Assembly (NCBI RefSeq): GCF_900114455.1
Contig: NZ_FOTC01000001.1
Span: 1 to 64,000 of the forward strand
DNA: 64,000 nt
Reading direction: 5' to 3'
From: Halogranum rubrum
GTDB lineage: Archaea; Halobacteriota; Halobacteria; Halobacteriales; Haloferacaceae
Shown here: positions 1 through 10,221 of the stretch, piece after piece
Layout: each line of letters opens with the position of its first letter
Numbering within the stretch: the first letter of the stretch is position 1
Made by a program: the position numbers and the translations under genes
Notes under the pieces: model-generated
Database searches by the model: none
What the model saw: only the letters and a program-made list of their open reading frames with translations
Told to the model about the DNA's origin: nothing

Positions 1-36
1 TAGCCCACGAGCACTAACAGTCCAAGCCACATTCAT
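1..36 (+). rRNA. 3' end of 23S rRNA (partial)
   Basis: The window opens inside the last bases of the large-subunit rRNA. The stretch CGAGCACTAACAG followed by CCAAGCCAC matches the conserved haloarchaeal 23S 3' terminus. The exact end is estimated. Positions 37-160 are the 23S-5S spacer, which carries a short hairpin (CTATGG, 7-nt loop, CCATAG) at about 136-154 just before 5S, probably part of rRNA processing. The gene is cut by the window edge. Confidence 0.75.
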
Positions 37-160
37 ACCGCATGGGATCAAATCCGTGTCCGATACACGGGTCCAGGTGCTAACTGGAATGCACGTACAC
101 AAGGTTCGATCAAGTCGAATCCGACATTGGTATCACTATGGTTCGATTCCATAGGTCGGC

Positions 161-283
161 ATTACGGCGGCCACAGCGGTGAGGTTCCACCCGTACCCAT
201 CCCGAACACGGAAGTTAAGCTCACCAGCGTGGTGGCAAGTACTGGAGTGCGAGAGCCTCTGGAAACACCACTTCGCCGCCTCC
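161..283 (+). rRNA. 5S ribosomal RNA
   Basis: This is a complete 5S rRNA of about 123 nt. The core CCCGTACCCATCCCGAACAC is the universal 5S loop region, and the ends GGCGGCCACAGCGGTG and CGCCGCC pair as helix I. It lies in the canonical haloarchaeal order 23S, 5S, tRNA-Cys. The ends may be off by a few nucleotides. The following spacer (284-524) shows no gene. Confidence 0.93.
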
Positions 284-490
284 ACTCATACTTACATTCA
301 TCAGCCTCGACGAGCAGCAGCGCTCGTCGGGGCTGTTCGCATTTCGGACGCAGAGCAGCAGCACTGTCAGAGACAGCGAGGAACAGTCGCCGTCGAAGAC
401 GTGCGCCCACCATCGCGCACAGCGCGAAGGTGGCCGAGCAACCACCTTCGTCAGAGGTAATCGCTCGAATCAGCCGACCTGAGACCGCTA

Positions 491-500
491 GGCTTAAGCG
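491..500 (+). promoter_or_regulatory. TATA-like box for tRNA-Cys
   Basis: The sequence GGCTTAAGCG contains a TTAAG core 27-31 nt ahead of the tRNA-Cys 5' end, the normal spacing of an archaeal TATA box to the start of transcription. It suggests tRNA-Cys can be transcribed separately from the rRNA operon. Confidence 0.45.
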
Positions 501-524
501 CAACTCCACACTACTCAGAGACGC

Positions 525-600
525 GCCAAGGTGGCAGAGTCCGGCCTAACGCAGCGGCCTGCAGAGCCGCCCATCGCCGGTTCAAATCCGGCCCTTGGCT
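525..600 (+). tRNA. tRNA-Cys (GCA)
   Basis: The 76-nt cloverleaf has acceptor strands GCCAAGG and CCTTGGC, anticodon stem GCGGC/GCCGC with loop CTGCAGA (anticodon GCA at 561-563), and T arm GCCGG TTCAAAT CCGGC. The unpaired discriminator base is U, as expected for tRNA-Cys. No CCA is encoded. The position after 5S rRNA is the usual haloarchaeal arrangement. Confidence 0.96.
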
Positions 601-744
601 TCTCACAGTTTCCCGCCCCACTAGCCGTTGCTAACGCGGCGTCGACCGAATAGTCGGGTCCCTCACACCGTCGACAAGCGAAAGGTTAACTCGTTCGTTC
701 TCGTACGCAAGAAAGACCTCGAATACAGTAGGTCTGTCTCACCA

Positions 745-987
745 ATGCGTACTCCAGACACACTCGACTACGCGTTCATCGTCGTACTCACCGTCCTCGT
801 CTATGTTCATCTTCCGTGGCGACCTGCGATTCGTCGTGGTCTGCGCAGCGGCGCTTCGGCCGCCGTCTCGATTGGGAACTCGCTCTTTCCGCCCAGTCCC
901 GAGAGTATCGTCGTTGCCGTCGCGGCAATCGGAGTCGTGCTGTTGGTCGTACTGTTCGAAGTTCTGCCTCGACGAAACGGTCCCTAA
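745..987 (+). CDS. small two-helix membrane protein
   Basis: This 80-residue protein is not recognised by family. Two hydrophobic segments (about residues 9-25 and 52-72) flank an arginine-containing loop, so it is probably an integral membrane protein with both ends on the same side. The ATG at 745 was chosen because the upstream in-frame extension is basic and unlike haloarchaeal proteins. It sits alone between tRNA-Cys and the next membrane protein gene. Function unknown. Confidence 0.6.
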   Translation: MRTPDTLDYAFIVVLTVLVYVHLPWRPAIRRGLRSGASAAVSIGNSLFPPSPESIVVAVAAIGVVLLVVLFEVLPRRNGP

Positions 988-1030
988 TGTGAGTGACGAA
1001 CCGACCTCTCAGATAGGGGTTGGTGTCATC

Positions 1031-1049
1031 CGAAAAGTAACCGTTATAC
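1031..1049 (+). promoter_or_regulatory. BRE/TATA promoter
   Basis: A purine-rich BRE-like CGAAAAGTAACC is followed by TTATAC at 1044-1049, about 24-29 nt before the ATG at 1073. The spacing implies a leaderless transcript and supports that start codon. Confidence 0.5.
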
Positions 1050-1072
1050 GCCGGGTAGCCTTTGCCCCACGT

Positions 1073-1957
1073 ATGCAACGACGCGCTGCGGCCATCTACG
1101 TCGCACTCTTCCTGGTCATCGGCGCGGGCGCGTACTCGCTCATTGCGACCGCCCAAAGTCCGACGATCGGGTTCGAAAACCCCGACTACGAACTCAGCCA
1201 GGGTCAGACCTTCCAAGTAGAGGGACAAACGTACAACGTCACGACCATCTCCGCAGAGATGGAGGGTGGTGGTGGCGGTGGCCACGGCGGCGGTGGCGGT
1301 GAGGAACTCGTCCGCTCCGGTGAAGTGTCGTGGGTGAACGACTCCGCGCGCTACACGGCGAACTGGGAGAACAACACCACGGTGACGACGGGTGAGGAGA
1401 ACACGACGTACCGCGTCCTCGTCCAGCAGTCGTCGGGGAACCCGACCGACTTCGTCCTCCGCGAGGAGATAAACGAGACGCAGATCCTCCAAAACGACAG
1501 CGCGGCCGACAACGAGACGGTCACGCGAAACGGTGAACGCTACGTCGTCATTCAAGACGGCAACGGGAGCGCGACGCTCGTCCCTGTCGGGGAGTACTTC
1601 CCGGAACCGTCCTCTCAGCAGTACAGCGAGAACCAGACGTTCGACTACAACGGAAACCAGACGACGGTCGAAGCCGTCGAAAACGAGTCTGTCACGCTCG
1701 CGTGGACCGCTCCGCAGACCAACACGGCAGAACTGAGCAACGAGGGCAACGTCACGCTCGGTGACCAGACGTACCTCGCACACTTCCCGAACAACGAGAC
1801 GGTCACGCTCTCGCAGGACTTCGAGAGCTACCGTTCGCAGTCACAGAATATCGAAGAGTATCACGAACACGTCAACGGCCTCTGGGGAATCGTCATCCTC
1901 TGTGGCTCCGTCGCAGCACTCCTCGTCGCGATGGCGTACCTCCCGTCGCGGTACTGA
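1073..1957 (+). CDS. membrane-anchored extracellular glycoprotein-like hypothetical protein
   Basis: The 294-residue protein has one N-terminal hydrophobic segment (about 5-25) and one near the C-terminus (about 265-285), with a large acidic domain between them that should lie outside the cell. That domain has about ten Asn-X-Ser/Thr sequons, consistent with archaeal N-glycosylation, and a Gly-rich stretch with a His at about residues 64-76. Start chosen from the TATA box 27 nt upstream. Probably a conserved haloarchaeal surface protein; no enzymatic motif was recognised. Confidence 0.7.
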   Translation: MQRRAAAIYVALFLVIGAGAYSLIATAQSPTIGFENPDYELSQGQTFQVEGQTYNVTTISAEMEGGGGGGHGGGGGEELVRSGEVSWVNDSARYTANWENNTTVTTGEENTTYRVLVQQSSGNPTDFVLREEINETQILQNDSAADNETVTRNGERYVVIQDGNGSATLVPVGEYFPEPSSQQYSENQTFDYNGNQTTVEAVENESVTLAWTAPQTNTAELSNEGNVTLGDQTYLAHFPNNETVTLSQDFESYRSQSQNIEEYHEHVNGLWGIVILCGSVAALLVAMAYLPSRY

Positions 1958-2632
1958 TGCGATAGACGCCGGCCGTCTTTTTGACAGGTCCGTCTCCTTT
2001 CGGAGCGTTTGCTCTCGTCGTGGGCAGTTTGTCAGATAGTGTAGCTATCTCCGCCGGACGCTCAGAGGCAGGTGTTCTCCCCGCCGGCGTCGACAGTGCG
2101 AAAGTCGTCATCTCGACGAACGAGGCGAATCCGGACGACGGTTATCACCTCGTTGAACACTCGATACGTACAGCGAAACGAACCGCCGACTCTCGGGAAC
2201 GGCACGTCTCACGTGCTCGTCGGCCGTTTTCGACGAGTTATGTAGTTGCTTCTGATCGCTCTCGCGTCGTCCCGCAGTTCACTGTGCGATTAATGAGCCG
2301 TTTTGCATACACTCTCTACGAGTAGAACTGTCTGTCTGTCCAGTTTATCTTCCTGTTCCGCAATACTAACAAAGTGTACTCTCCGCAATTAGCGACCCGT
2401 CGTTCTTCTCGTGCGTCGAACTGCACGGAAGCACGAACGCTCCGGAAGGAGTACCGTCGACGAACCGTCGCACGCTCGACGGTGTCTGACATCCTTCTAC
2501 GCGCGCCGTGACCGGCTTGACTTTCCCCGGCCACGGCATCGTTCTCTCCGTCGCTCACCTCGACAGAGTTCGCTCTCACGATGCGAACTCACAGGCACAC
2601 GCATAAGTAGAGCCACGCCTGTAGATACGGCC
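1958..2632. other. 675-nt region without a convincing gene
   Basis: Open frames exist on both strands (for example 1981-2325 plus and 2316-2579 minus), but their products are basic, low in Asp/Glu and lack a promoter at the right spacing, so they were not called. The 2240-2400 part is AT-richer than its surroundings. It could hold regulatory sequence, a non-coding RNA or decayed genes; nothing specific could be assigned. Confidence 0.5.
2602..2610 (+). promoter_or_regulatory. TATA box for a leaderless GTG gene
   Basis: CATAAGTAG lies about 27 nt before the GTG at 2633. This spacing predicts a transcript that begins at or near the start codon and decides the start of the next gene. Confidence 0.45.
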
Positions 2633-2977
2633 GTGTCCGACGAGTTCTCCCAGAATCCCGAGGACGAGACCGACGAGAACGTACCGACCATCTCTTGTTC
2701 ACGCTGCGGGCGAGAGTGGGACCTCTCGTACGAACTCGACGACCTCCAAGTCGGGAACCAGTCGGCCGAACAGTTCGCTCTGGACCATATGCGTCACACC
2801 GGCCACTTCCCCGACAGCGTAACTCCGTGGGTCGCACGCTGCCGACAGTGCCCCGACGGTGACGAGTTTCTCACAGAGCGACCTGCACAGCGGTGGGCCG
2901 AGATACACGCTCGCCACACGAGACACACGGTTGCGCTCACTCACAATGACGAGCAGACCACCGTCGACCCGGAGTGA
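2633..2977 (+). CDS. small double-CxxC zinc-binding hypothetical protein
   Basis: The 114-residue acidic protein has a CSRC motif near residue 22 and a CRQC motif near residue 72, each followed by His-containing segments (DHMRHTGH and HARHTRH). The spacing looks like two C2H2-like zinc knuckles or one split zinc ribbon. The family is not recognised. The GTG start is supported by the TATA box 27 nt upstream. Such proteins in haloarchaea may bind nucleic acid or act as adaptors; this is inference only. Confidence 0.65.
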   Translation: MSDEFSQNPEDETDENVPTISCSRCGREWDLSYELDDLQVGNQSAEQFALDHMRHTGHFPDSVTPWVARCRQCPDGDEFLTERPAQRWAEIHARHTRHTVALTHNDEQTTVDPE

Positions 2978-3021
2978 GCGTCTCACTTCGGCGTTTCTCT
3001 CTTCTCGTCCGACGCCGACCG

Positions 3022-3030
3022 TTTCTTATT
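3022..3030 (+). promoter_or_regulatory. TATA box of the helicase-nuclease operon
   Basis: TTTCTTATT lies 23-31 nt before the ATG at 3053. With usual archaeal spacing, transcription would begin at that ATG, making the micro-ORF, not the AddB-like gene at 3157, the first translated frame. Confidence 0.45.
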
Positions 3031-3052
3031 CCCCTCGGACGATACCACTGAC

Positions 3053-3160
3053 ATGTCTCTCCTCGCAACAGTTCTCGCTTCTCTACAGACACTGGCCGTA
3101 CGGTGGCCGGTTGGTCTCCAGTTCTCTTCGACGCACGGCCTCGTGATGTGGCGGCGATGA
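3053..3160 (+). CDS. 35-residue leader micro-ORF coupled to the AddB-like gene
   Basis: An ATG at the predicted transcription start opens a 35-codon frame starting MSLLATVLASLQTLAV. Its TGA (3158-3160) overlaps the ATG of the next gene (3157-3159) as ATGA, the same coupling seen between the two downstream genes. The N-terminal half is hydrophobic and the C-terminal part contains WRR. It may be a real small protein or a leader frame whose translation feeds ribosomes to the next gene. It is too short to judge by composition. Confidence 0.4.
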   Translation: MSLLATVLASLQTLAVRWPVGLQFSSTHGLVMWRR

Positions 3161-5196
3161 CGACATCAGGACCCACCTCACGGTCCGACGCTGACGGCGT
3201 GACAGTTCACGTCGACGACGTCGACGAGTTACTCGGTTACGCCGCTCGGTCGACCCACCGAACCGACCTGGTGGTGACACCCGAGCAGTTGCACGCGCGG
3301 AACCTCAAGCGACGACTGTCGGCGACGAGTCGACCACGGAGTTCGTTGCAGTTCTGTGACCTGTCGAGCGTCGCCAGCGACGTTCTGACGGAGGCGGGCG
3401 ACAGCGCGACCGCCCTCGACCGCATCGACCGAATTCGAACACTCGAAACGCTGCTCGACGAGCGACCCGACGAGTTCCGTCACTTCGAACCACTGTTCGG
3501 GACTCGCCTGTCGGCACACGTCTCGACTATCGAGAGTGCACGGGCGACAGTCGACGCCGTCACCGGGTACGACCCCGGACGACTCGACGCTCTGGACGAA
3601 CTCATCGAGACGACGCCACCCGTCTCTCGGCGCGACGCACGAAGCCTCGTCGAGGGTGCCGTCGCCACCGAGCGCTTGCTCGCGTCGACGACGGATGCTG
3701 CCGTCTCGGGCGACGCCGTCTTGCGAGCGGCCACGACGAGTATCCGAGAGACGAGCGGCGTCGTGTTCGAAGCGGCGTACCCGGAGGCCGAACGTCTCCA
3801 CCTCGCGGGCGTGAGTTCGGTCGCTGCGACCCTTCGTGACTTTCTGTTGGCCGTCGCCGAGGAGACAGCCGTCGACGTTCGTCTCTTCGCTCGCGCTGGG
3901 ACCGGTCCGGGAATCGCCGGACGGCTACAGGAGAGAGCGGTGACCCCGTGGCACGACCGTGCCCTCCCATCTGTTTCGCTCGACGTGCCCGTCACCGAGA
4001 TGGTGGCCACGACGCGCGAGCAAGAAGCACGACTCGCCGTGGCGCTCGTCACCCGACTCGCCGACAGCGGCATCTCGCTGAGTGACATCCTCGTCGTCGC
4101 ACGCGACGTCGATGGCTACGAACGTGCGCTCTGTCGGGCGGCGAGACAGTACCGCCAACCTCTCTCGCTTTGGACGCAGCTTTCCGTGACGGAGACACGC
4201 CCATACACACTGGTCGAGTCGGTCTGCCGTCTGCTCGATGCTCGCGACGGACCGTTCCCACTGGAGACGCTGTGCCGACCGCTGTTTGCCGAGTGGGTCG
4301 ACCCCGATGGAGAAACGCCGTCGGCGCTGCCACGGCGTGCACTCGACGATGCCCGCGACCGGTTGGGCCGACAGACCCGTTCGCTCTCCGAGTGGCGTAC
4401 ACGCGTCGCCGAGACGACGCTCCCCGAGCAGGTCGAACGGTGGCTCCGGTCGTTGCTCTCGTGGGCGGCCGCACAGCCACTCGCCCCGGAACCGACGGAC
4501 GTTCGCGAGACGTTCACACCACTCCTCGACGCGTATCGCGAACTCGTCTTGCTGACTCACCGCGAACGCGACGACGAGTCGCTGGCGGAGACGACGGAGT
4601 CTGCGCGCGCACTCGTCCGTCTCGAACGCCTCGTCGACGACGTCGCAGCGAAGTACGAGGCGTGGCTCGACCGGGGTCAGACCGACCGGACGTGGGAGGC
4701 CGTCCAGTACCTGTTCGAGACGATTGCGACGGTCAAACCGGGGCGGCGTGAACACGCGAACGCCGGCGTCGTCGACGTCGTCGATGCGACCGACGCGTGG
4801 GCACGTACGGAACCCTACGTCGTCGTACTCGGACTGGTCGACGGAGTGTGGCCGCTCCCGCCCGAAGGGCTGTTCCCCGTCGAGGTTCGCGACACGCTGC
4901 TCGGTGGGTCGACAACGGCCGCCCGGCGTCTCGCGCCCCGTGAGGGCTGGACGGTCGCACGCGAGTTCGACCACTTCGCCGACGCCGTCTCGACTGCTAC
5001 CGACCACCTCGTCTGTACTCGCCACGAACGGGCCGCAGACGGTTCGGACGCCTCCCGTTCGCCGTTCTTCGACGCCATCGACGTGACACGGGGCGCACCG
5101 ACGCGAATCGGGCAGGCGGCGACGACTCGACTGTTGAGCCACGAGCGCACGCTCCCGGACCCGCTGGCTGGCCTCGTCGGGAGGGAGAGCCGATGA
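3157..5196 (+). CDS. AddB/RecC-like inactive helicase subunit
   Basis: The 679-residue protein resembles the helicase-like half of AddB. It has a degenerate N-terminal domain with no Walker A motif (about residues 20-50), a middle section like the AddB helicase-2 region (around 290-370: TREQEARLAVALVTRLADSG, then DILVVARDVDGYERAL), and an AddB-type motif PYVVVLGLVDGVWPLPPEG at about residue 552. It ends after a CTRHERAADGSDASRSPFF segment typical of the last helicase-like motif and lacks the C-terminal Fe-S nuclease of true AddB. It overlaps the downstream helicase-nuclease by 4 nt (ATGA), implying one complex, by analogy with RecBCD/AddAB DNA-end resection. The assignment rests on motif pattern only. 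Confidence 0.6.
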   Translation: MTTSGPTSRSDADGVTVHVDDVDELLGYAARSTHRTDLVVTPEQLHARNLKRRLSATSRPRSSLQFCDLSSVASDVLTEAGDSATALDRIDRIRTLETLLDERPDEFRHFEPLFGTRLSAHVSTIESARATVDAVTGYDPGRLDALDELIETTPPVSRRDARSLVEGAVATERLLASTTDAAVSGDAVLRAATTSIRETSGVVFEAAYPEAERLHLAGVSSVAATLRDFLLAVAEETAVDVRLFARAGTGPGIAGRLQERAVTPWHDRALPSVSLDVPVTEMVATTREQEARLAVALVTRLADSGISLSDILVVARDVDGYERALCRAARQYRQPLSLWTQLSVTETRPYTLVESVCRLLDARDGPFPLETLCRPLFAEWVDPDGETPSALPRRALDDARDRLGRQTRSLSEWRTRVAETTLPEQVERWLRSLLSWAAAQPLAPEPTDVRETFTPLLDAYRELVLLTHRERDDESLAETTESARALVRLERLVDDVAAKYEAWLDRGQTDRTWEAVQYLFETIATVKPGRREHANAGVVDVVDATDAWARTEPYVVVLGLVDGVWPLPPEGLFPVEVRDTLLGGSTTAARRLAPREGWTVAREFDHFADAVSTATDHLVCTRHERAADGSDASRSPFFDAIDVTRGAPTRIGQAATTRLLSHERTLPDPLAGLVGRESR

Positions 5197-8100
5197 CCGA
5201 AGACCAAGCGAGAGCCGAAAACGGAGATAGAGACGGAGATCGGACGAGCGGCGACGGGAGTTCGTCCGAGGCGTCCACGCCGTTCGTCCGGTTGGACGGT
5301 GCGCAGCGAGCGATTCGTGACGCCTTCTTCGCTCACGAGTCGGGGCTGTTCGCGTTGGAGTCCGACCCCGGAACGGGCAAGTCGACGACGAGCGAGCACG
5401 TCGCTGCGGAGTTTCTCGCTCGCGCCCACGCCGAGGGCGTCGACGCGCCCGAGGAGACGCTGGCGTTCGTCTCGTTCACTCGCGACGACGCCGCCGCCAT
5501 CGGTCCGGGTATCGCCGACGCGCTGGAGGCCATCGCACGTGACCCGACGCGAGACGTGACGCTCTCCGTCGAGACCGCTCGCGAACTCGGCCGCCGCGTG
5601 CAGCGAGCGACAAACGTCGGAACGGTCGACAGCGTCGTAGGGAGCGTCTTCGCGACGCTCGCCACCGAGGTCGGATTCGAGGAGCCACCGGTCGTGAGCG
5701 ACGGGGCTGGCCTTCGGTCGATTCGGGCGACCTGCCTGCACCGACTCCGCACCGAGGACCAGTACGCAGACTCGCTCGACCGACTCGACGAGGCGTACCC
5801 GGGTGGGGAGCACCGAGACGACGTCGGTGACCTGCTGCGGAACGCACAACTCGCCTGTCGCGAGCGTCGGTTGTCGGTCACGGCGTTCCGAACTCGACTC
5901 GAAGCCGTCGTCGACGAGACGTACCTCGGCGGGGCTCCAGACTCGTTTGCAGACGTGCGAGACGCCGTCGAGCAGTTCGTGAACGCCGACGTCGCCGAGA
6001 CGTTCGCCGAGGGGCTCTCCGCCGAGAGGACGAGCGCGGAGGCCGTCGTCTCCGCAGACCGCACGCTCTACGAAGCGTGGACGACGGCCGTCGACGACCT
6101 CTGTACTGTCCTCGAACGCTACGTGGAACTGTACGACGAGACGACTCGACGCGAGGGTGTCGTCTCTCATCTCGACGTCTCCCACTGGGTCGCGGAGTTC
6201 TTCACGCGAGACGAGTACGCGGGTGTGTTCCGCGAGCGTCTCCGCGCACGCCACACCGACCGACTCTCGGCCGTCGTCGTCGACGAGGCACAGGACGTCT
6301 CGGCGGTCCAGCACGCCGCCCTCTCCGGACTCGTCGACGACGAGATGCGCGTCCTCCTCGTCGGCGACTACAAGCAGTGTATCTTCTTGTGGCGGAACGC
6401 CCTCCCCGGTCTCTTTCGAGACGCTATCGAGTCGGGTCGTTACTTCGGCATCGGCTGGGACGTCCACGTCGTCGAACACGAGAAGCGGACACGTCGCTGT
6501 CGTCCCGGCGTCGCCGCCGCCGTCGACACCGTCTTCGCGGGCGTGTTCACCGACCCCGCCCGTGGTGGTGACGACGCTACTGGCCGCTCGTACACGCCGC
6601 TCGAACCAACTCGTGAGGCGACGGCCGACCCGAACGTCCACGTCGCTGCGGTCACCACACCCGCTGAACCGGGGAGACCGACGTACGTCACGCCGGACTC
6701 CGGCGTCGGGGAGGCGACGGCACTTGCAAGATGCCTCGCGGACGGACTCGCCGACGGGTCGTTTGCGGACCCCGACGACAGTGAGGACGACCCCTCCGTG
6801 ACCGTGCTGTTCTCGCGACGACGGAACGTCGACGCGTTCGCGAGCGCCTTCGAGCGCGAGGGACTCGTCGTCGGTGACGCGACGGACCTGTTGTTCGAGT
6901 ACCCGCTCGTCGAACTCGTCACTGCGGTCTGTACGTGGCTCGCTGACCCCACCGACGACGCGCTTCGCACACTCGCTTCCGACCCCGTCTTCGAGGAGAT
7001 GTCGCTCACGGGCCTCTTCGAACTCTGTTCGTGGTCGGTTCCGGCCGTCGCCGACGTCGACGCCGATGGCCGACCGGTCGTCGAGTTCGTCCACGCGCTC
7101 GACAGACTCCTCGAACGTCGCCCTCGGTTCGTCACGCAGTCTCCGGTCACTGTCGTCGAAACCGTCGTCGACGAACTCGGCCTGTGGCGCGACCCACTCG
7201 ATTCGACCGACGACTCGACACGACGCGTTACCGCCCTCGACGCGCTCTTGTCCCACGTCGAGCAGTCGTCTCGTCCGGACGCCGACGACTCTTCGACCTC
7301 TTCACTCGTCGAACTCGCGGCGGAACTCTCACAGCGCCGTGAGGACCCGAGGAGCGGCGGCGCGCTCCCCGTCGTCGACGAGGGCGACTGCGACGTCGTC
7401 TGTCGAACGATTCACTCGATGAAGGGTGCCGAAGCCGACGTCGTCGCACTCGGCGACATCGGCGGTCACATCGCGACGTACGGCCCCCACACCGACACGC
7501 TGGCGACACTCGGAACACATCTCGCACTCGCCCCGCCGACCCGTGATGGCGCCGACGTTCCGGCAGTTCCAGGATTCGAACACGGGCTGTTCGCCGTCGA
7601 CCGTGACCCGTGGGACTACGACGCCGGTCTCCGGTGGGCGACACAGCGGTGGGCAGACGACGAACGACTCGCCGGGTCGCCGCCACTCCGAAGACTCTCA
7701 CACGCGAACCGTGCGGAACGATGGCGACTGCTCTACGTCGCGCTGACGCGCGCACGGAACCATCTGGTCCTCCCACTTCCGACGCACCGTGAGGACCCTG
7801 ACCCCCGTGACCGGTGGGTCGACACGCTCCGCGAGGCACTCCAGTTCGACGAGACGAGAACCGACAGCTATCGCTGTCCGACACCGACAGGCGAGTCGTT
7901 CGCGGTTCGAGTGCATCACCGGGGCGGCCGACCGGTGGAGTCAGACGAGACGACTGCCGTTCCGACCCCGTTCGTCGCGACAAGGGGTGTTGCAGGGGCG
8001 GGTGTCGAATCGACGAGGACGACGGCCGCTTCCGCTCCGTCGTCTGAGCGGCGCGATAGACGGACGTGGACGCCGCGGTTCGTCAACCCCAGTACGCTCT

Positions 8101-8780
8101 ACCCGCTCTTGACCGACCCCGACGAGCATCTCCTCGACTATCTTCAGCGACGTCCACTCCACACCGAACACGATGGCGTCGACGACGGCCTACCGCTCAC
8201 CTTCGAGACGATGGGTCCCGAAGACGTCGGCGACGTCGGCCACGCGGTGCTCGCGACGGCGATTCGAGAGCGGGTGACGACCGAGACGCTCGAACAGTGT
8301 TCGGGACCACTCGCTCGAACCCTCCGATACGCGCTGGCAGACCGTGCCGGTCGCATCAGTGCCGACGAACGGAGCCGACTCCAACGCTTCGTCGCCGACA
8401 CCATCTGTCCGCAGTTCGCGGCGAGTCCGCTCTGGGAGCGACTCCAAGACGCACAGGCAGTGTACGTCGAGGAACCGGTGGACACGCTCGTTCGGGTCGA
8501 CGGTCTCGACCGTGAACTACAGGGCGTCGCCGACGTACTCTCCGTCGACGCGACAGGGACGTGGCACGTCGACGAGGTCAAACTCGTCCTCCAGTCGAGT
8601 TCCTCCGAGACACAGAAACGGTACCGTCTCCAAGCACAGGTCTACGCGTGGGCCGTCTCGAAACAAGTGGCTTCAGAAACAGTCGTGCCAACCATCACGC
8701 AACTCGGGGTCGAGACGCGAACCGAGACCGTCGAGTGGGACGAGAAGGCCGTGCTCGACCGGTTTGGAGAGTTGCCGTAG
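5193..8780 (+). CDS. AddA/RecB-like UvrD-family helicase with C-terminal PD-(D/E)XK nuclease
   Basis: The 1195-residue protein is a superfamily 1 helicase. It has a Q-motif-like LDGAQRAI (34-41), Walker A DPGTGKST (58-65), motif Ia FVSFTRDDA (92-100), Walker B VVVDEAQD (361-368), motif III VGDYKQCIFLW (390-400) and a late motif LLYVALTRARNHLVL. A RecB-type nuclease domain closes the protein, with Asp1114 in GVADVL, Asp1127/Glu1128-x-Lys1130 and QAQVY at 1147-1151. It should unwind and cut DNA ends together with the upstream AddB-like protein. Archaeal end resection is usually ascribed to HerA-NurA-Mre11-Rad50, so this would be an alternative or accessory route. Helicase and nuclease calls are firm; the role is inferred. 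Confidence 0.85.
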   Translation: MTEDQARAENGDRDGDRTSGDGSSSEASTPFVRLDGAQRAIRDAFFAHESGLFALESDPGTGKSTTSEHVAAEFLARAHAEGVDAPEETLAFVSFTRDDAAAIGPGIADALEAIARDPTRDVTLSVETARELGRRVQRATNVGTVDSVVGSVFATLATEVGFEEPPVVSDGAGLRSIRATCLHRLRTEDQYADSLDRLDEAYPGGEHRDDVGDLLRNAQLACRERRLSVTAFRTRLEAVVDETYLGGAPDSFADVRDAVEQFVNADVAETFAEGLSAERTSAEAVVSADRTLYEAWTTAVDDLCTVLERYVELYDETTRREGVVSHLDVSHWVAEFFTRDEYAGVFRERLRARHTDRLSAVVVDEAQDVSAVQHAALSGLVDDEMRVLLVGDYKQCIFLWRNALPGLFRDAIESGRYFGIGWDVHVVEHEKRTRRCRPGVAAAVDTVFAGVFTDPARGGDDATGRSYTPLEPTREATADPNVHVAAVTTPAEPGRPTYVTPDSGVGEATALARCLADGLADGSFADPDDSEDDPSVTVLFSRRRNVDAFASAFEREGLVVGDATDLLFEYPLVELVTAVCTWLADPTDDALRTLASDPVFEEMSLTGLFELCSWSVPAVADVDADGRPVVEFVHALDRLLERRPRFVTQSPVTVVETVVDELGLWRDPLDSTDDSTRRVTALDALLSHVEQSSRPDADDSSTSSLVELAAELSQRREDPRSGGALPVVDEGDCDVVCRTIHSMKGAEADVVALGDIGGHIATYGPHTDTLATLGTHLALAPPTRDGADVPAVPGFEHGLFAVDRDPWDYDAGLRWATQRWADDERLAGSPPLRRLSHANRAERWRLLYVALTRARNHLVLPLPTHREDPDPRDRWVDTLREALQFDETRTDSYRCPTPTGESFAVRVHHRGGRPVESDETTAVPTPFVATRGVAGAGVESTRTTAASAPSSERRDRRTWTPRFVNPSTLYPLLTDPDEHLLDYLQRRPLHTEHDGVDDGLPLTFETMGPEDVGDVGHAVLATAIRERVTTETLEQCSGPLARTLRYALADRAGRISADERSRLQRFVADTICPQFAASPLWERLQDAQAVYVEEPVDTLVRVDGLDRELQGVADVLSVDATGTWHVDEVKLVLQSSSSETQKRYRLQAQVYAWAVSKQVASETVVPTITQLGVETRTETVEWDEKAVLDRFGELP

Positions 8781-8858
8781 CAGAGCGAGAATCGTGTTCG
8801 GGTTCGTGTCGAACCGAGAAAACGAGTCCGACGAGCTTTCGTTCGGTGTCTGAATGAA

Positions 8859-8950
8859 GTCAACATTTCTGGGCCGTAGAGGCTTCTAACCGGTGAGCAT
8901 AAACTGCTCACGCGATGGCTCCTCTAGCCATTTCGTTCGTCAACGTTGAC
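8859..8950. repeat. nested inverted repeats between helicase operon and wHTH gene
   Basis: Three pairs of arms nest inside each other: GTCAAC (8859-8864) with GTTGAC (8945-8950), TAGAGG (8877-8882) with CCTCTA (8921-8926), and a perfect 7-bp stem GTGAGCA/TGCTCAC (8893-8899, 8905-8911) with loop TAAAC. The right end is itself a 12-bp palindrome GTCAACGTTGAC (8939-8950). The structure could end the helicase transcript, act as operator for the wHTH gene, or be a decayed element end. Confidence 0.55.
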
Positions 8951-8978
8951 TACGATTCGTACATTTCCAACCTAATGG

Positions 8979-8986
8979 ATATATGT
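8979..8986 (+). promoter_or_regulatory. TATA box of the wHTH/partner operon
   Basis: GATATATG lies 24-31 nt before the ATG at 9010, giving a leaderless transcript. The palindrome GTCAACGTTGAC ends 28 bp upstream of it, a plausible regulator site. Confidence 0.55.
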
Positions 8987-9009
8987 TCTAGCAGTCCGTA
9001 GTCTCGAGT

Positions 9010-9528
9010 ATGACCGAAGACGAGCGCGATACCTCCGCTGGCCCGCCGATGACGCGTGGTGAACGAATTCGTGCGGCCGCACGGACACTCCGGACGCCTC
9101 GGACTGCCTCGTGGGTTGCGAAGGAGACCGAGGTCTCAGTCAAGACAGCACAGAAGTACCTCGACCAACTCGTCGAGGACAACGTGCTTCGGACGGTCGA
9201 ACAGGGAGAGCAGACGCTCTACTGCGTCGACCAGCTCATGGCGACCTACCGTGAGGTCGCAACGCTTCAGCGAGAACACAGTCGACAGGACCTGACGAGC
9301 GGCCTCGAATCGATGCGTGCGAAGGTCAGCGACTGGAAGCAGTCGTACGACGTCGAGAGTCCCGGCGAACTCCGAGCCAGCATCGCCGACGTCGACGACG
9401 CCGACGAGAGTGAGACACGGCAAGACATCGCCAGCGAGTGGGAGCACCTTCTCGACCGCATCACTATCGTCCGCGCCGCACTCAACGAATACGACTGGGC
9501 GACCGAGCGGGACTCGATCTCTGTATAG
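9010..9528 (+). CDS. winged-helix transcriptional regulator (DUF7342-like), possible antitoxin
   Basis: The 172-residue protein has a winged-helix domain at about residues 15-75. The segment ASWVAKETEVSVKTAQKYLD is a clear helix-turn-helix and the wing follows (LRTVEQGEQTLYCVD). The acidic C-terminal half is helical and may bind the partner. Its TAG is directly followed by the ATG of the next gene, so the two are translated together. It resembles haloarchaeal DUF7342 regulators. The upstream palindrome may be its own operator. Antitoxin status is inferred from layout, not shown. Confidence 0.75.
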   Translation: MTEDERDTSAGPPMTRGERIRAAARTLRTPRTASWVAKETEVSVKTAQKYLDQLVEDNVLRTVEQGEQTLYCVDQLMATYREVATLQREHSRQDLTSGLESMRAKVSDWKQSYDVESPGELRASIADVDDADESETRQDIASEWEHLLDRITIVRAALNEYDWATERDSISV

Positions 9529-9969
9529 ATGGGCCTGTCAGGGACTATCGACAGTTCGGTCTACGCGGGGCTGAAAGATGTCCTCCAGCGACATCCCGCG
9601 GTCACGTCGGTCGGCTACGAACCGGACAGCATCGTCAAGAAGTTCGTCCGAGCACGGGTCGACCCGAACCGCATCGTCCCCGTGACTGGACCAGCGCCGC
9701 CGATGCTGGACGTTGAGTGGCGCTTCGACGGCGACGACCAGCAGTTCCGCATTCACTACGCCGACCCGAACACCGGATTCAACTGCGGGTGGCACTGCGA
9801 CGACGACCACCCCGAACTCGGTTCAGTCCACTTCCAGTCCTACCACCCAGAGTCGGGTGAGACCACGCACGAGCAGGCGACGTTCGAGAAGTCACTTCCA
9901 ACGGAGATTCTGTGGACCGCGCTCGACCGACTGTTCCGAGAGCGACTGCTAAGCCTCGCTGTCGAATAG
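9529..9969 (+). CDS. small partner protein, TumE-like pattern (putative toxin)
   Basis: This 146-residue protein has a central pattern of beta strands with conserved His/Trp/Asp positions (FRIHYADPNTGFNCGWHCDD, then HPELGSVHFQ) and a C-terminal helix PTEILWTALDRLF. The order strand-rich core, HPE.. segment, HF element, terminal helix recalls TumE-type toxins, which pair with an HTH antitoxin gene. Similarity was judged by eye and is weak. It starts at the base after the wHTH stop codon and lies next to a tRNA gene with a duplicated end. Confidence 0.5.
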   Translation: MGLSGTIDSSVYAGLKDVLQRHPAVTSVGYEPDSIVKKFVRARVDPNRIVPVTGPAPPMLDVEWRFDGDDQQFRIHYADPNTGFNCGWHCDDDHPELGSVHFQSYHPESGETTHEQATFEKSLPTEILWTALDRLFRERLLSLAVE

Positions 9970-10105
9970 CTGTCTCTCATCAAGGAAAACGACCCGTCGA
10001 GCGCAGCGGCGACCGCCTCGTTACGTGTTGGACTCAACCGGCACTGAACGCTGCTGAGGCCGTCAAATCGCCTGCTGTCGGCTCTATTCGCCCCGAGAAG
10101 TGAAG

Positions 10106-10121
10106 AAGCGAGCCCGACGGG
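10106..10121. repeat. partial copy of tRNA-Arg 3' end (att-like direct repeat)
   Basis: The 16-nt AAGCGAGCCCGACGGG recurs exactly at 10219-10234, across the 3' end of tRNA-Arg, and similarity continues for about 10 nt more with changes (GTTTGGAACC versus ATTTGAACCC). Duplication of a tRNA 3' end is what integration by a tyrosine recombinase leaves, but no integrase gene is present in the window. The gap 9970-10221 contains no gene. Confidence 0.6.
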
Positions 10122-10221
10122 TTTGGAACCACGCCCGAGAACCTGCGCTCCGCGCAGAACCTCGGTCTGCTTCAAATCCCGCGTCTGCTCGCTTTGCTCG
10201 TCACGTTGTTCCTCACAAAAG

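What the first reader, a model, noticed from the sequence alone, without database searches (positions are those of the whole stretch)
3157..8780. AddAB/RecBC-like helicase-nuclease pair in a haloarchaeon
Two genes overlapping by ATGA encode a protein with an inactive AddB/RecC-like helicase fold (no Walker A, VVVLGLVDGVWP motif near residue 552, no C-terminal nuclease) and a full UvrD-type helicase with a RecB-type nuclease (Asp1114, Asp1127/Glu1128-x-Lys1130, QAQVY 1147-1151). The division of labour is closer to RecB/RecC than to two-nuclease AddAB. Archaeal end resection is normally attributed to HerA-NurA with Mre11-Rad50, so this may be a second resection route or a defence nuclease. The motifs are seen; the complex and role are inferred.
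Basis: partly seen in the sequence, partly recalled or inferred. Interest (0 to 1): 0.72.

Follow-up and report, generated by a model that had tools for sequence, protein, structure and literature searches.

The report
Haloarchaeal AddAB with nuclease-free AddB
Some salt-loving archaea carry a mobile two- or three-gene machine, related to the bacterial DNA-end-chewing enzyme AddAB but with one of its two cutting domains deleted, which probably unwinds and degrades broken or invading DNA.

Summary
Window 3157-5196 and 5193-8780 encode a 679-aa inactive helicase (B) and a 1195-aa UvrD-type helicase with a PD-(D/E)XK nuclease (A), overlapping by ATGA. The relationship is AddAB. The predicted B structure (pLDDT 89) matches AddB chains best, ahead of RecC, and predicted A matches AddA best. 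B has no Pfam or NCBIfam match, but profiles connect it to longer haloarchaeal B proteins with a dead nuclease and intact iron-sulphur cysteines, and through them to AddB. So this is an AddAB-derived enzyme whose B lost its nuclease, convergent with RecC in labour but not ancestry. A and B co-occur perfectly (45 of 292 haloarchaeal genomes have both, none only one). Every family member found is in Halobacteria. In half of the family B is split into two genes at the boundary between its helicase domains, always by an RTGA overlap. The cassette is patchy, often on megaplasmids, nearly identical between families, and replaced by another gene in a same-genus genome. NurA is near universal there, so this is an accessory machine. 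Activity, complex formation and role (defence or accessory resection) are inferred. On plasmids B is annotated only as 'hypothetical protein'.

The parts
3157..5196 (+). B subunit: 679-aa AddB-like inactive helicase without nuclease domain
   Evidence: AlphaFold2 pLDDT 89, pTM 0.84; Foldseek best five hits are AddB chains
3199..3927 (+). B residues 15-257: helicase domain 1 (1A/1B-like) with beta strand 15-19 followed by a loop that has no P-loop (degenerate ATP site)
   Evidence: secondary structure; no GxGKT in any of 16 aligned homologues
3928..3972 (+). B residues 258-272: low-confidence linker; in the split clade the gene is divided here (B1 | B2)
   Evidence: pLDDT dip; split boundaries
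3973..5136 (+). B residues 273-660: helicase domain 2 (2A/2B-like)
   Evidence: profile match to long B and AddB
4819..4854 (+). VVVLGLVDGVWP motif (residues 555-566), equivalent to the LG(L/V)xxGxxP helicase-like motif of AddB/RecC
   Evidence: V555 G559 V561 D562 G563 W565 P566 invariant
4864..4926 (+). Insertion with helix 575-583 directly after the DGVWP motif; candidate counterpart of the AddB/RecC ionic latch
   Evidence: helix; P574 and G584 invariant, R578 in 14 of 16; latch described in PMC4824097; equivalence not proven
5193..5196 (+). ATGA overlap between the B stop and the A start (translational coupling)
   Evidence: the same kind of overlap in most homologous loci
5193..8780 (+). 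A subunit: 1195-aa UvrD-type (SF1A) helicase fused to a RecB-family nuclease
   Evidence: Pfam UvrD-helicase 1.7e-16, PDDEXK_1 3.2e-6; AddA best in PDB by profile and fold
5364..5384 (+). Walker A region DPGTGKS (residues 58-64)
   Evidence: G60, G62, K63 invariant in 25 homologues
6282..6296 (+). Walker B DEAQD (residues 364-368)
   Evidence: invariant in 25 homologues
8202..8762 (+). PD-(D/E)XK nuclease domain without the four iron-sulphur cysteines
   Evidence: Pfam match from residue 1004; fold elements 1009-1192
8532..8645 (+). Nuclease catalytic region: D1114, E1128-x-K1130, Q1147, Y1151 (plus H1017 at 8241-8243)
   Evidence: invariant residues, again
3053..3160 (+). 35-codon upstream ORF ending in an ATGA overlap with the B start; possible leader, may be chance
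   Evidence: sequence reading; not tested in homologues
2928..10165 (.). Stretch not matched by DNA in the same-genus genome, where a 316-aa ORF (fumarylacetoacetate-hydrolase-like by reading) sits between the same neighbours

Best explanation
The two genes encode an AddAB-derived helicase-nuclease. A is the only motor and the only nuclease: it should load on a free double-stranded end, move 3'->5' on one strand and cut the strands as they emerge. B is a catalytically dead SF1 helicase that clamps on A, holds the 3' strand channel and may scan it for a recognition sequence, as the equivalent domain of AddB does with Chi. B has lost the nuclease domain of AddB altogether. In half of the family B is made as two translationally coupled pieces, one per helicase domain, so the enzyme there is expected to be A plus B1 plus B2. 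It is a mobile accessory cassette of haloarchaeal chromosomes and megaplasmids and most likely destroys linear or invading DNA, and/or resects breaks, alongside the near-universal NurA. Shown here: genes, motifs, fold relationships, co-occurrence, coupling, patchy and mobile distribution. Inferred: complex, activity, polarity, scanning and role.
For: Fold: B model pLDDT 89, pTM 0.84, top five PDB matches all AddB chain B (E 3.2e-18 to 2.9e-16), RecC at 2.3e-13; A model (pLDDT 78) top four matches all AddA chain A (E 1.4e-30 to 2.0e-27), RecB next. Sequence chain: B family vs long B (dead nuclease) E 1.7e-36 over 646 columns; long B vs nuclease-bearing AddB 1.6e-14; B family vs that AddB 4.6e-7; long B profile vs PDB hits AddB 3.7e-8, RecC only 0.017. 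Long B keeps C839, C1148, C1151, C1157 but not the DYK active site present in the nuclease-bearing AddB. Linkage: 45/45 co-occurrence in 292 genomes; 4-nt overlaps; 20 of 20 split loci use RTGA; Halobaculum plasmids keep both genes though 7-15 kb apart. Accessory and mobile: about 15% of genomes; plasmid copies; 98% DNA identity over 7.3 kb between genomes of different families (family codes); a different gene in the orthologous site of a same-genus genome. NurA in 115/116.
Against: No direct sequence match of B to any PDB chain or curated family, so the AddB link rests on fold prediction and on intermediates. The A model is less certain (pTM 0.62) and its full-length superposition is loose. 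No heterodimer model could be made. No partner gene or constant neighbourhood indicates the role. The proposed latch pair is not strictly conserved.
Confidence: 0.68

Rival explanations
1. Anti-invader defence system: the enzyme degrades linear DNA of viruses and plasmids, much as RecBCD does, and spares the host because B recognises a host sequence or because host ends are protected.
For: Patchy, mobile, plasmid-borne distribution; a different gene in the orthologous site; several copies lie near restriction or DUF1156/helicase genes; related long or nuclease-bearing pairs sit next to DNA methyltransferase or DUF499 genes.
Against: Many copies have ordinary neighbours, no background rate was measured, no PADLOC model matches B and A matches only the generic helicase part of GajB.
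Confidence: 0.45
2. Accessory end-resection enzyme for homologous recombination, acting beside Mre11-Rad50 and NurA and feeding RadA.
For: Closest folds are AddAB, whose known role is resection; a related pair in Halapricum lies next to genes annotated as a DNA repair exonuclease and a double-strand-break-repair AAA ATPase.
Against: Present in only about 15% of genomes while a NurA-family gene is near universal; moves between families.
Confidence: 0.35
3. A true RecBC (plus missing RecD) enzyme acquired from bacteria.
For: Same division of labour: one nuclease and one dead partner.
Against: Profile comparison of B with E. coli RecC finds nothing; AddB and AddA are the better structural and profile matches; no RecD-like gene recurs among the neighbours; the RecC nuclease-like domain (PMC1185551) is absent.
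Confidence: 0.04
4. The split B in half of the family is decay (pseudogenes) or sequencing error, not a functional two-piece subunit.
For: A gene divided in two is often decay; one genome (G078) holds a B fragment with two stops.
Against: 20 of 20 split loci share the same RTGA overlap at the same domain boundary across diverged sequences; the state changes once on the tree, on a branch with 99% support; both halves stay conserved and linked to A.
Confidence: 0.03

Closest known systems
AddAB (RexAB), Bacillus subtilis; PDB 3u44, 3u4q, 4ceh-4cej
   Same: A matches AddA and B matches the AddB helicase-like region by fold; two genes, B then A; dead helicase in B, SF1A motor plus PD-(D/E)XK nuclease in A
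   Different: B lacks the entire C-terminal nuclease and its iron-sulphur cysteines; the A nuclease lacks the four cysteines; B is split in half of the family; found only in Halobacteria
RecBCD (E. coli)
   Same: One active nuclease in the motor subunit and a catalytically dead partner with a helicase fold
   Different: No RecD, no RecC nuclease-like domain or pin domain, no sequence relation to RecC, AddB-like by fold
AdnAB (mycobacteria)
   Same: SF1 helicase-nuclease heterodimer; AdnA is among the structural matches of B
   Different: B has neither an active motor loop nor a nuclease
Haloarchaeal 'PD-(D/E)XK nuclease family protein' + 'UvrD-helicase' pairs (e.g. Haloplanus rubicundus, Halapricum desulfuricans plasmids)
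   Same: AddB-AddA-like adjacent pairs, patchy, often on plasmids (60 of 282 genomes)
   Different: Their B keeps an active-looking nuclease and the cysteine motif; they are a separate family that co-occurs freely with the present one (12 genomes have both)
Gabija (GajAB)
   Same: A and GajB share the UvrD helicase core
   Different: No GajA-type nuclease gene; B is unrelated to GajA by fold search; A carries its own nuclease

Membership tests
AddAB (AddB subunit) | N-terminal inactivated SF1 helicase fold | tested here: met
AddAB (AddB subunit) | Sequence relationship to AddB | tested here: met
   met only through intermediates; the direct search found none
AddAB (AddB subunit) | C-terminal PD-(D/E)XK nuclease | tested here: not met
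   protein ends after helicase domain 2; no nuclease match
AddAB (AddB subunit) | Four-cysteine iron-sulphur site | tested here: not met
   absent in B; present in long B and nuclease-bearing AddB
AddAB (AddB subunit) | Ionic latch insertion in domain 2A with a conserved salt bridge to 1B | tested here: inconclusive
   an insertion with a helix is present, but the arginine is in 14 of 16 and no invariant acidic partner was found
AddAB (AddA subunit) | Active SF1A helicase motifs plus PD-(D/E)XK nuclease | tested here: met
AddAB | Adjacent, co-occurring genes | tested here: met
   operon broken in two Halobaculum plasmids with both genes retained
AddAB | Heterodimer, Chi-regulated end processing | not testable with these tools
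   needs biochemistry; no multimer prediction available
RecBCD | RecC sequence relationship | tested here: not met
RecBCD | Dead nuclease-like domain in the RecC-type subunit | tested here: not met
   RecC domain described in PMC1185551
RecBCD | Linked RecD helicase | tested here: not met
   no recurring third helicase gene among the neighbours
AdnAB | Nuclease in both subunits and motor in AdnB, nucleotide site in AdnA | tested here: not met
   no P-loop and no nuclease in B
Gabija | GajA partner (OLD-type ATPase-nuclease) | tested here: not met
   B gives no GajA match in PADLOC and B folds as AddB

The most novel reading that the evidence does not exclude
A Halobacteria-specific, horizontally mobile immune machine: an AddAB derivative stripped to one nuclease, with a dead-helicase scanner that can be a two-piece subunit and reads an archaeal Chi-like mark to tell host from foreign ends. 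It would be the first Chi-type regulated end processor in Archaea and a third evolutionary solution beside AddAB and RecBCD.
Probability: 0.2. Interest if true: 0.8.

Novelty: new variant of a known kind. Interest (0 to 1): 0.55.

Why it matters
AddAB and RecBCD are treated as bacterial, and papers read here describe haloarchaeal resection through Mre11-Rad50 only. A family of AddAB-type enzymes in which B has first a dead and then no nuclease provides the intermediate states proposed for the origin of RecC, independently evolved. The split B gives a natural two-piece version of the Chi-scanning domain. Mobility makes it a candidate defence system that can be tested in genetically tractable Haloferax.

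Tried and rejected
Direct sequence search of B against Pfam, NCBIfam, PADLOC and PDB gave nothing useful. The first genome-contig scan with A alone found nothing; the B profile worked. No B relatives in IMG/VR viral contigs, nor in the rest of the archaeal phylum sampled apart from one marginal match, E 6e-4 over 54 positions. RecBC ancestry rejected. Gabija membership rejected (one search matches are the shared helicase core). Shared-neighbour search found no constant partner; the recurrent DUF7344, HNH and integrase neighbours belong mainly to parts of the split clade. Programmed frameshifting as the reason for the split was considered and disfavoured, because every junction is an RTGA stop/start overlap and no shared slippery run is seen. 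Background rate of defence genes around the cassette not measured.
Full report
Observation. The two ORFs lie where stated. B runs 3157-5196 and A 5193-8780, joined by ATGA. Alignment of 16 one-piece B proteins (38-51% identity to the window's) fits the ATG at 3157 as the likely start and shows many invariant residues, including V555-P566 (VVVLGLVDGVWP) and no P-loop. Alignment of 25 A proteins shows invariant Walker A, DEAQD, motif VI arginine and nuclease residues H1017, D1114, K1130, Q1147 and Y1151, with E or D at 1128.

What B is. B matches nothing in Pfam, NCBIfam, PADLOC or the PDB by sequence. AlphaFold2 with 19 family rows gives pLDDT 89 and pTM 0.84. Foldseek against the PDB places all five AddB chains first (E 3.2e-18 to 2.9e-16, TM by query length 0.56-0.62), then UvrD, RecC (2.3e-13) and AdnA. 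Sequence intermediates agree. Haloarchaeal long B proteins of about 1140-1180 aa align with nearly the whole of B (E 1.7e-36, 646 columns). Their profile hits AddB in the PDB at 3.7e-8 and RecC at 0.017. They also align with haloarchaeal AddB that still has a nuclease (1.6e-14), as does B directly (4.6e-7). B against E. coli RecC gives nothing.

A loss series. The nuclease-bearing AddB (L122, L123) has GxIDRV, HDYKTG, QLPxY and four cysteines. The long B (L076, L077, L078, L120, L121) keeps the cysteines (C839, C1148, C1151, C1157 invariant) but has no DYK. The window type ends after helicase domain 2. RecC by contrast keeps a dead nuclease-like domain with a structural role (PMC1185551). The resemblance to RecBC is therefore in division of labour, reached by another path. 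The order of events is an inference; the tree is rooted on four long-type A proteins only.

What A is. NCBIfam addA_Gpos, E 1.5e-17, is the best of many SF1 families, all far below cut-off. The A profile hits AddA 4.4e-29, AdnB 4e-24 and RecB about 1e-6 in the PDB. The A model (pLDDT 78, pTM 0.62) matches AddA first (1.4e-30), then RecB. The nuclease lacks the iron-sulphur cysteines seen in long A proteins.

One system. In the same 292 haloarchaeal genomes, 45 have B, 45 have A, and they are the same 45; one further genome (G078) holds only a B remnant with two stops. The genes are adjacent in nearly all loci, usually with 4-nt overlaps. Two Halobaculum plasmids have lost adjacency (7 and 15 kb) yet keep both genes, which argues for functional rather than merely positional linkage. 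All members found lie in Halobacteria; the wider phylum sample gave only one marginal match.

Split B. In about half of the loci B is two ORFs meeting at residue about 260, the low-confidence linker between the two helicase domains. All 20 junctions inspected are GTGA or ATGA. On a tree of 52 A proteins the one-piece and split states are separated by a single branch with 99% support. This predicts a three-subunit enzyme A-B1-B2 in that clade. Which state came first is not settled by the tree.

Accessory and mobile. The cassette occurs in about 15% of genomes and in 15 plasmid records (B annotated as 'hypothetical protein', A as 'UvrD-helicase domain-containing protein'). Copies in different families share 98% DNA identity over 7.3 kb (L055 and L056, families f2 and f1). 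In a same-genus genome the flanks are conserved (ferredoxin side, tRNA-Arg, zinc-ribbon-like ORF, tRNA-Cys), but a 316-aa ORF stands in place of the pair. A NurA-family gene is in 115 of 116 genomes including this one, and a DUF87/HerA-like ORF lies about 4 kb from it. PMC7776575 states that HerA and NurA are absent from H. volcanii, and PMC12977600 that they are not apparent in halophilic archaea. The Pfam NurA match in H. volcanii disagrees at family level; whether it is functional NurA is open.

Role. Neighbours vary. Some copies lie near restriction, Eco57I or DUF1156/helicase genes, others near metabolism or siderophore genes. The related long and nuclease-bearing pairs lie near methyltransferases or DUF499, or beside a repair exonuclease/ATPase pair. 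No background rate was measured, so defence is favoured only moderately over accessory repair. A scanner function for B is inferred from AddB, where the equivalent region harbours Chi recognition and the latch (PMC4824097).

Literature. Searches of the held open library for AddAB/AddB with haloarchaea found no description of this family. Most subscription papers are not held, and one survey of RecBCD/AddAB distribution that was looked up was not available, so prior notice of archaeal AddAB cannot be excluded.

Verdict. A real, conserved, nuclease-free AddB family that is not recognised in the annotation seen here, with a split form, in an archaeal AddAB-type enzyme: a new variant of a known kind. 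My estimates: identity of the fold family about 0.93, complex about 0.85, defence versus repair undecided.

Noticed in passing
own genome contig C10:62877-68331 (L006 6878-12332): A second AddAB-like pair in the same genome: an 860-aa protein with an intact-looking PD-(D/E)XK site followed by a 975-aa AddA-like helicase-nuclease, on a 99.7-kb contig.
   Followed up: partly
L123 (Haloplanus rubicundus plasmid) 1-8409: A nuclease-bearing AddB/AddA pair sits next to a DNA methyltransferase, an 'alkaline phosphatase' (possibly PglZ) and DUF499, a layout resembling BREX/Pgl-type defence loci.
   Followed up: no
own genome C6:1027308-1028222 and 115 of 116 haloarchaeal genomes: A NurA-family (PF09376) gene is near universal in haloarchaea, H. 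volcanii included, although recent papers call HerA/NurA absent or not apparent there; a DUF87 (HerA-like) ORF lies about 4 kb away in this genome.
   Followed up: partly
L130 (reverse complement) 2939-3889 versus window 2928-10165: The orthologous site of a same-genus genome carries a fumarylacetoacetate-hydrolase-like ORF instead of the AddAB-like pair and the two genes after it.
   Followed up: yes
window 9010-9969: DUF7342 winged-helix protein followed immediately by a 146-aa protein without family; looks like a small two-gene unit.
   Followed up: no
window 3053-3160: 35-codon upstream ORF whose stop overlaps the B start codon as ATGA; possible translational coupling leader.
   Followed up: no
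L077 8824-12321, L076, L078, L120, L121: Long B proteins that retain an AddB-type cysteine motif but have lost the nuclease active site: a cluster apparently kept only for structure.
   Followed up: partly
L059, L062, L071 (downstream), L069, L071, L092 (upstream): Parts of the split-B clade recur with a phage-integrase-family gene downstream, and with DUF7344 regulators and an HNH-like protein upstream.
   Followed up: partly
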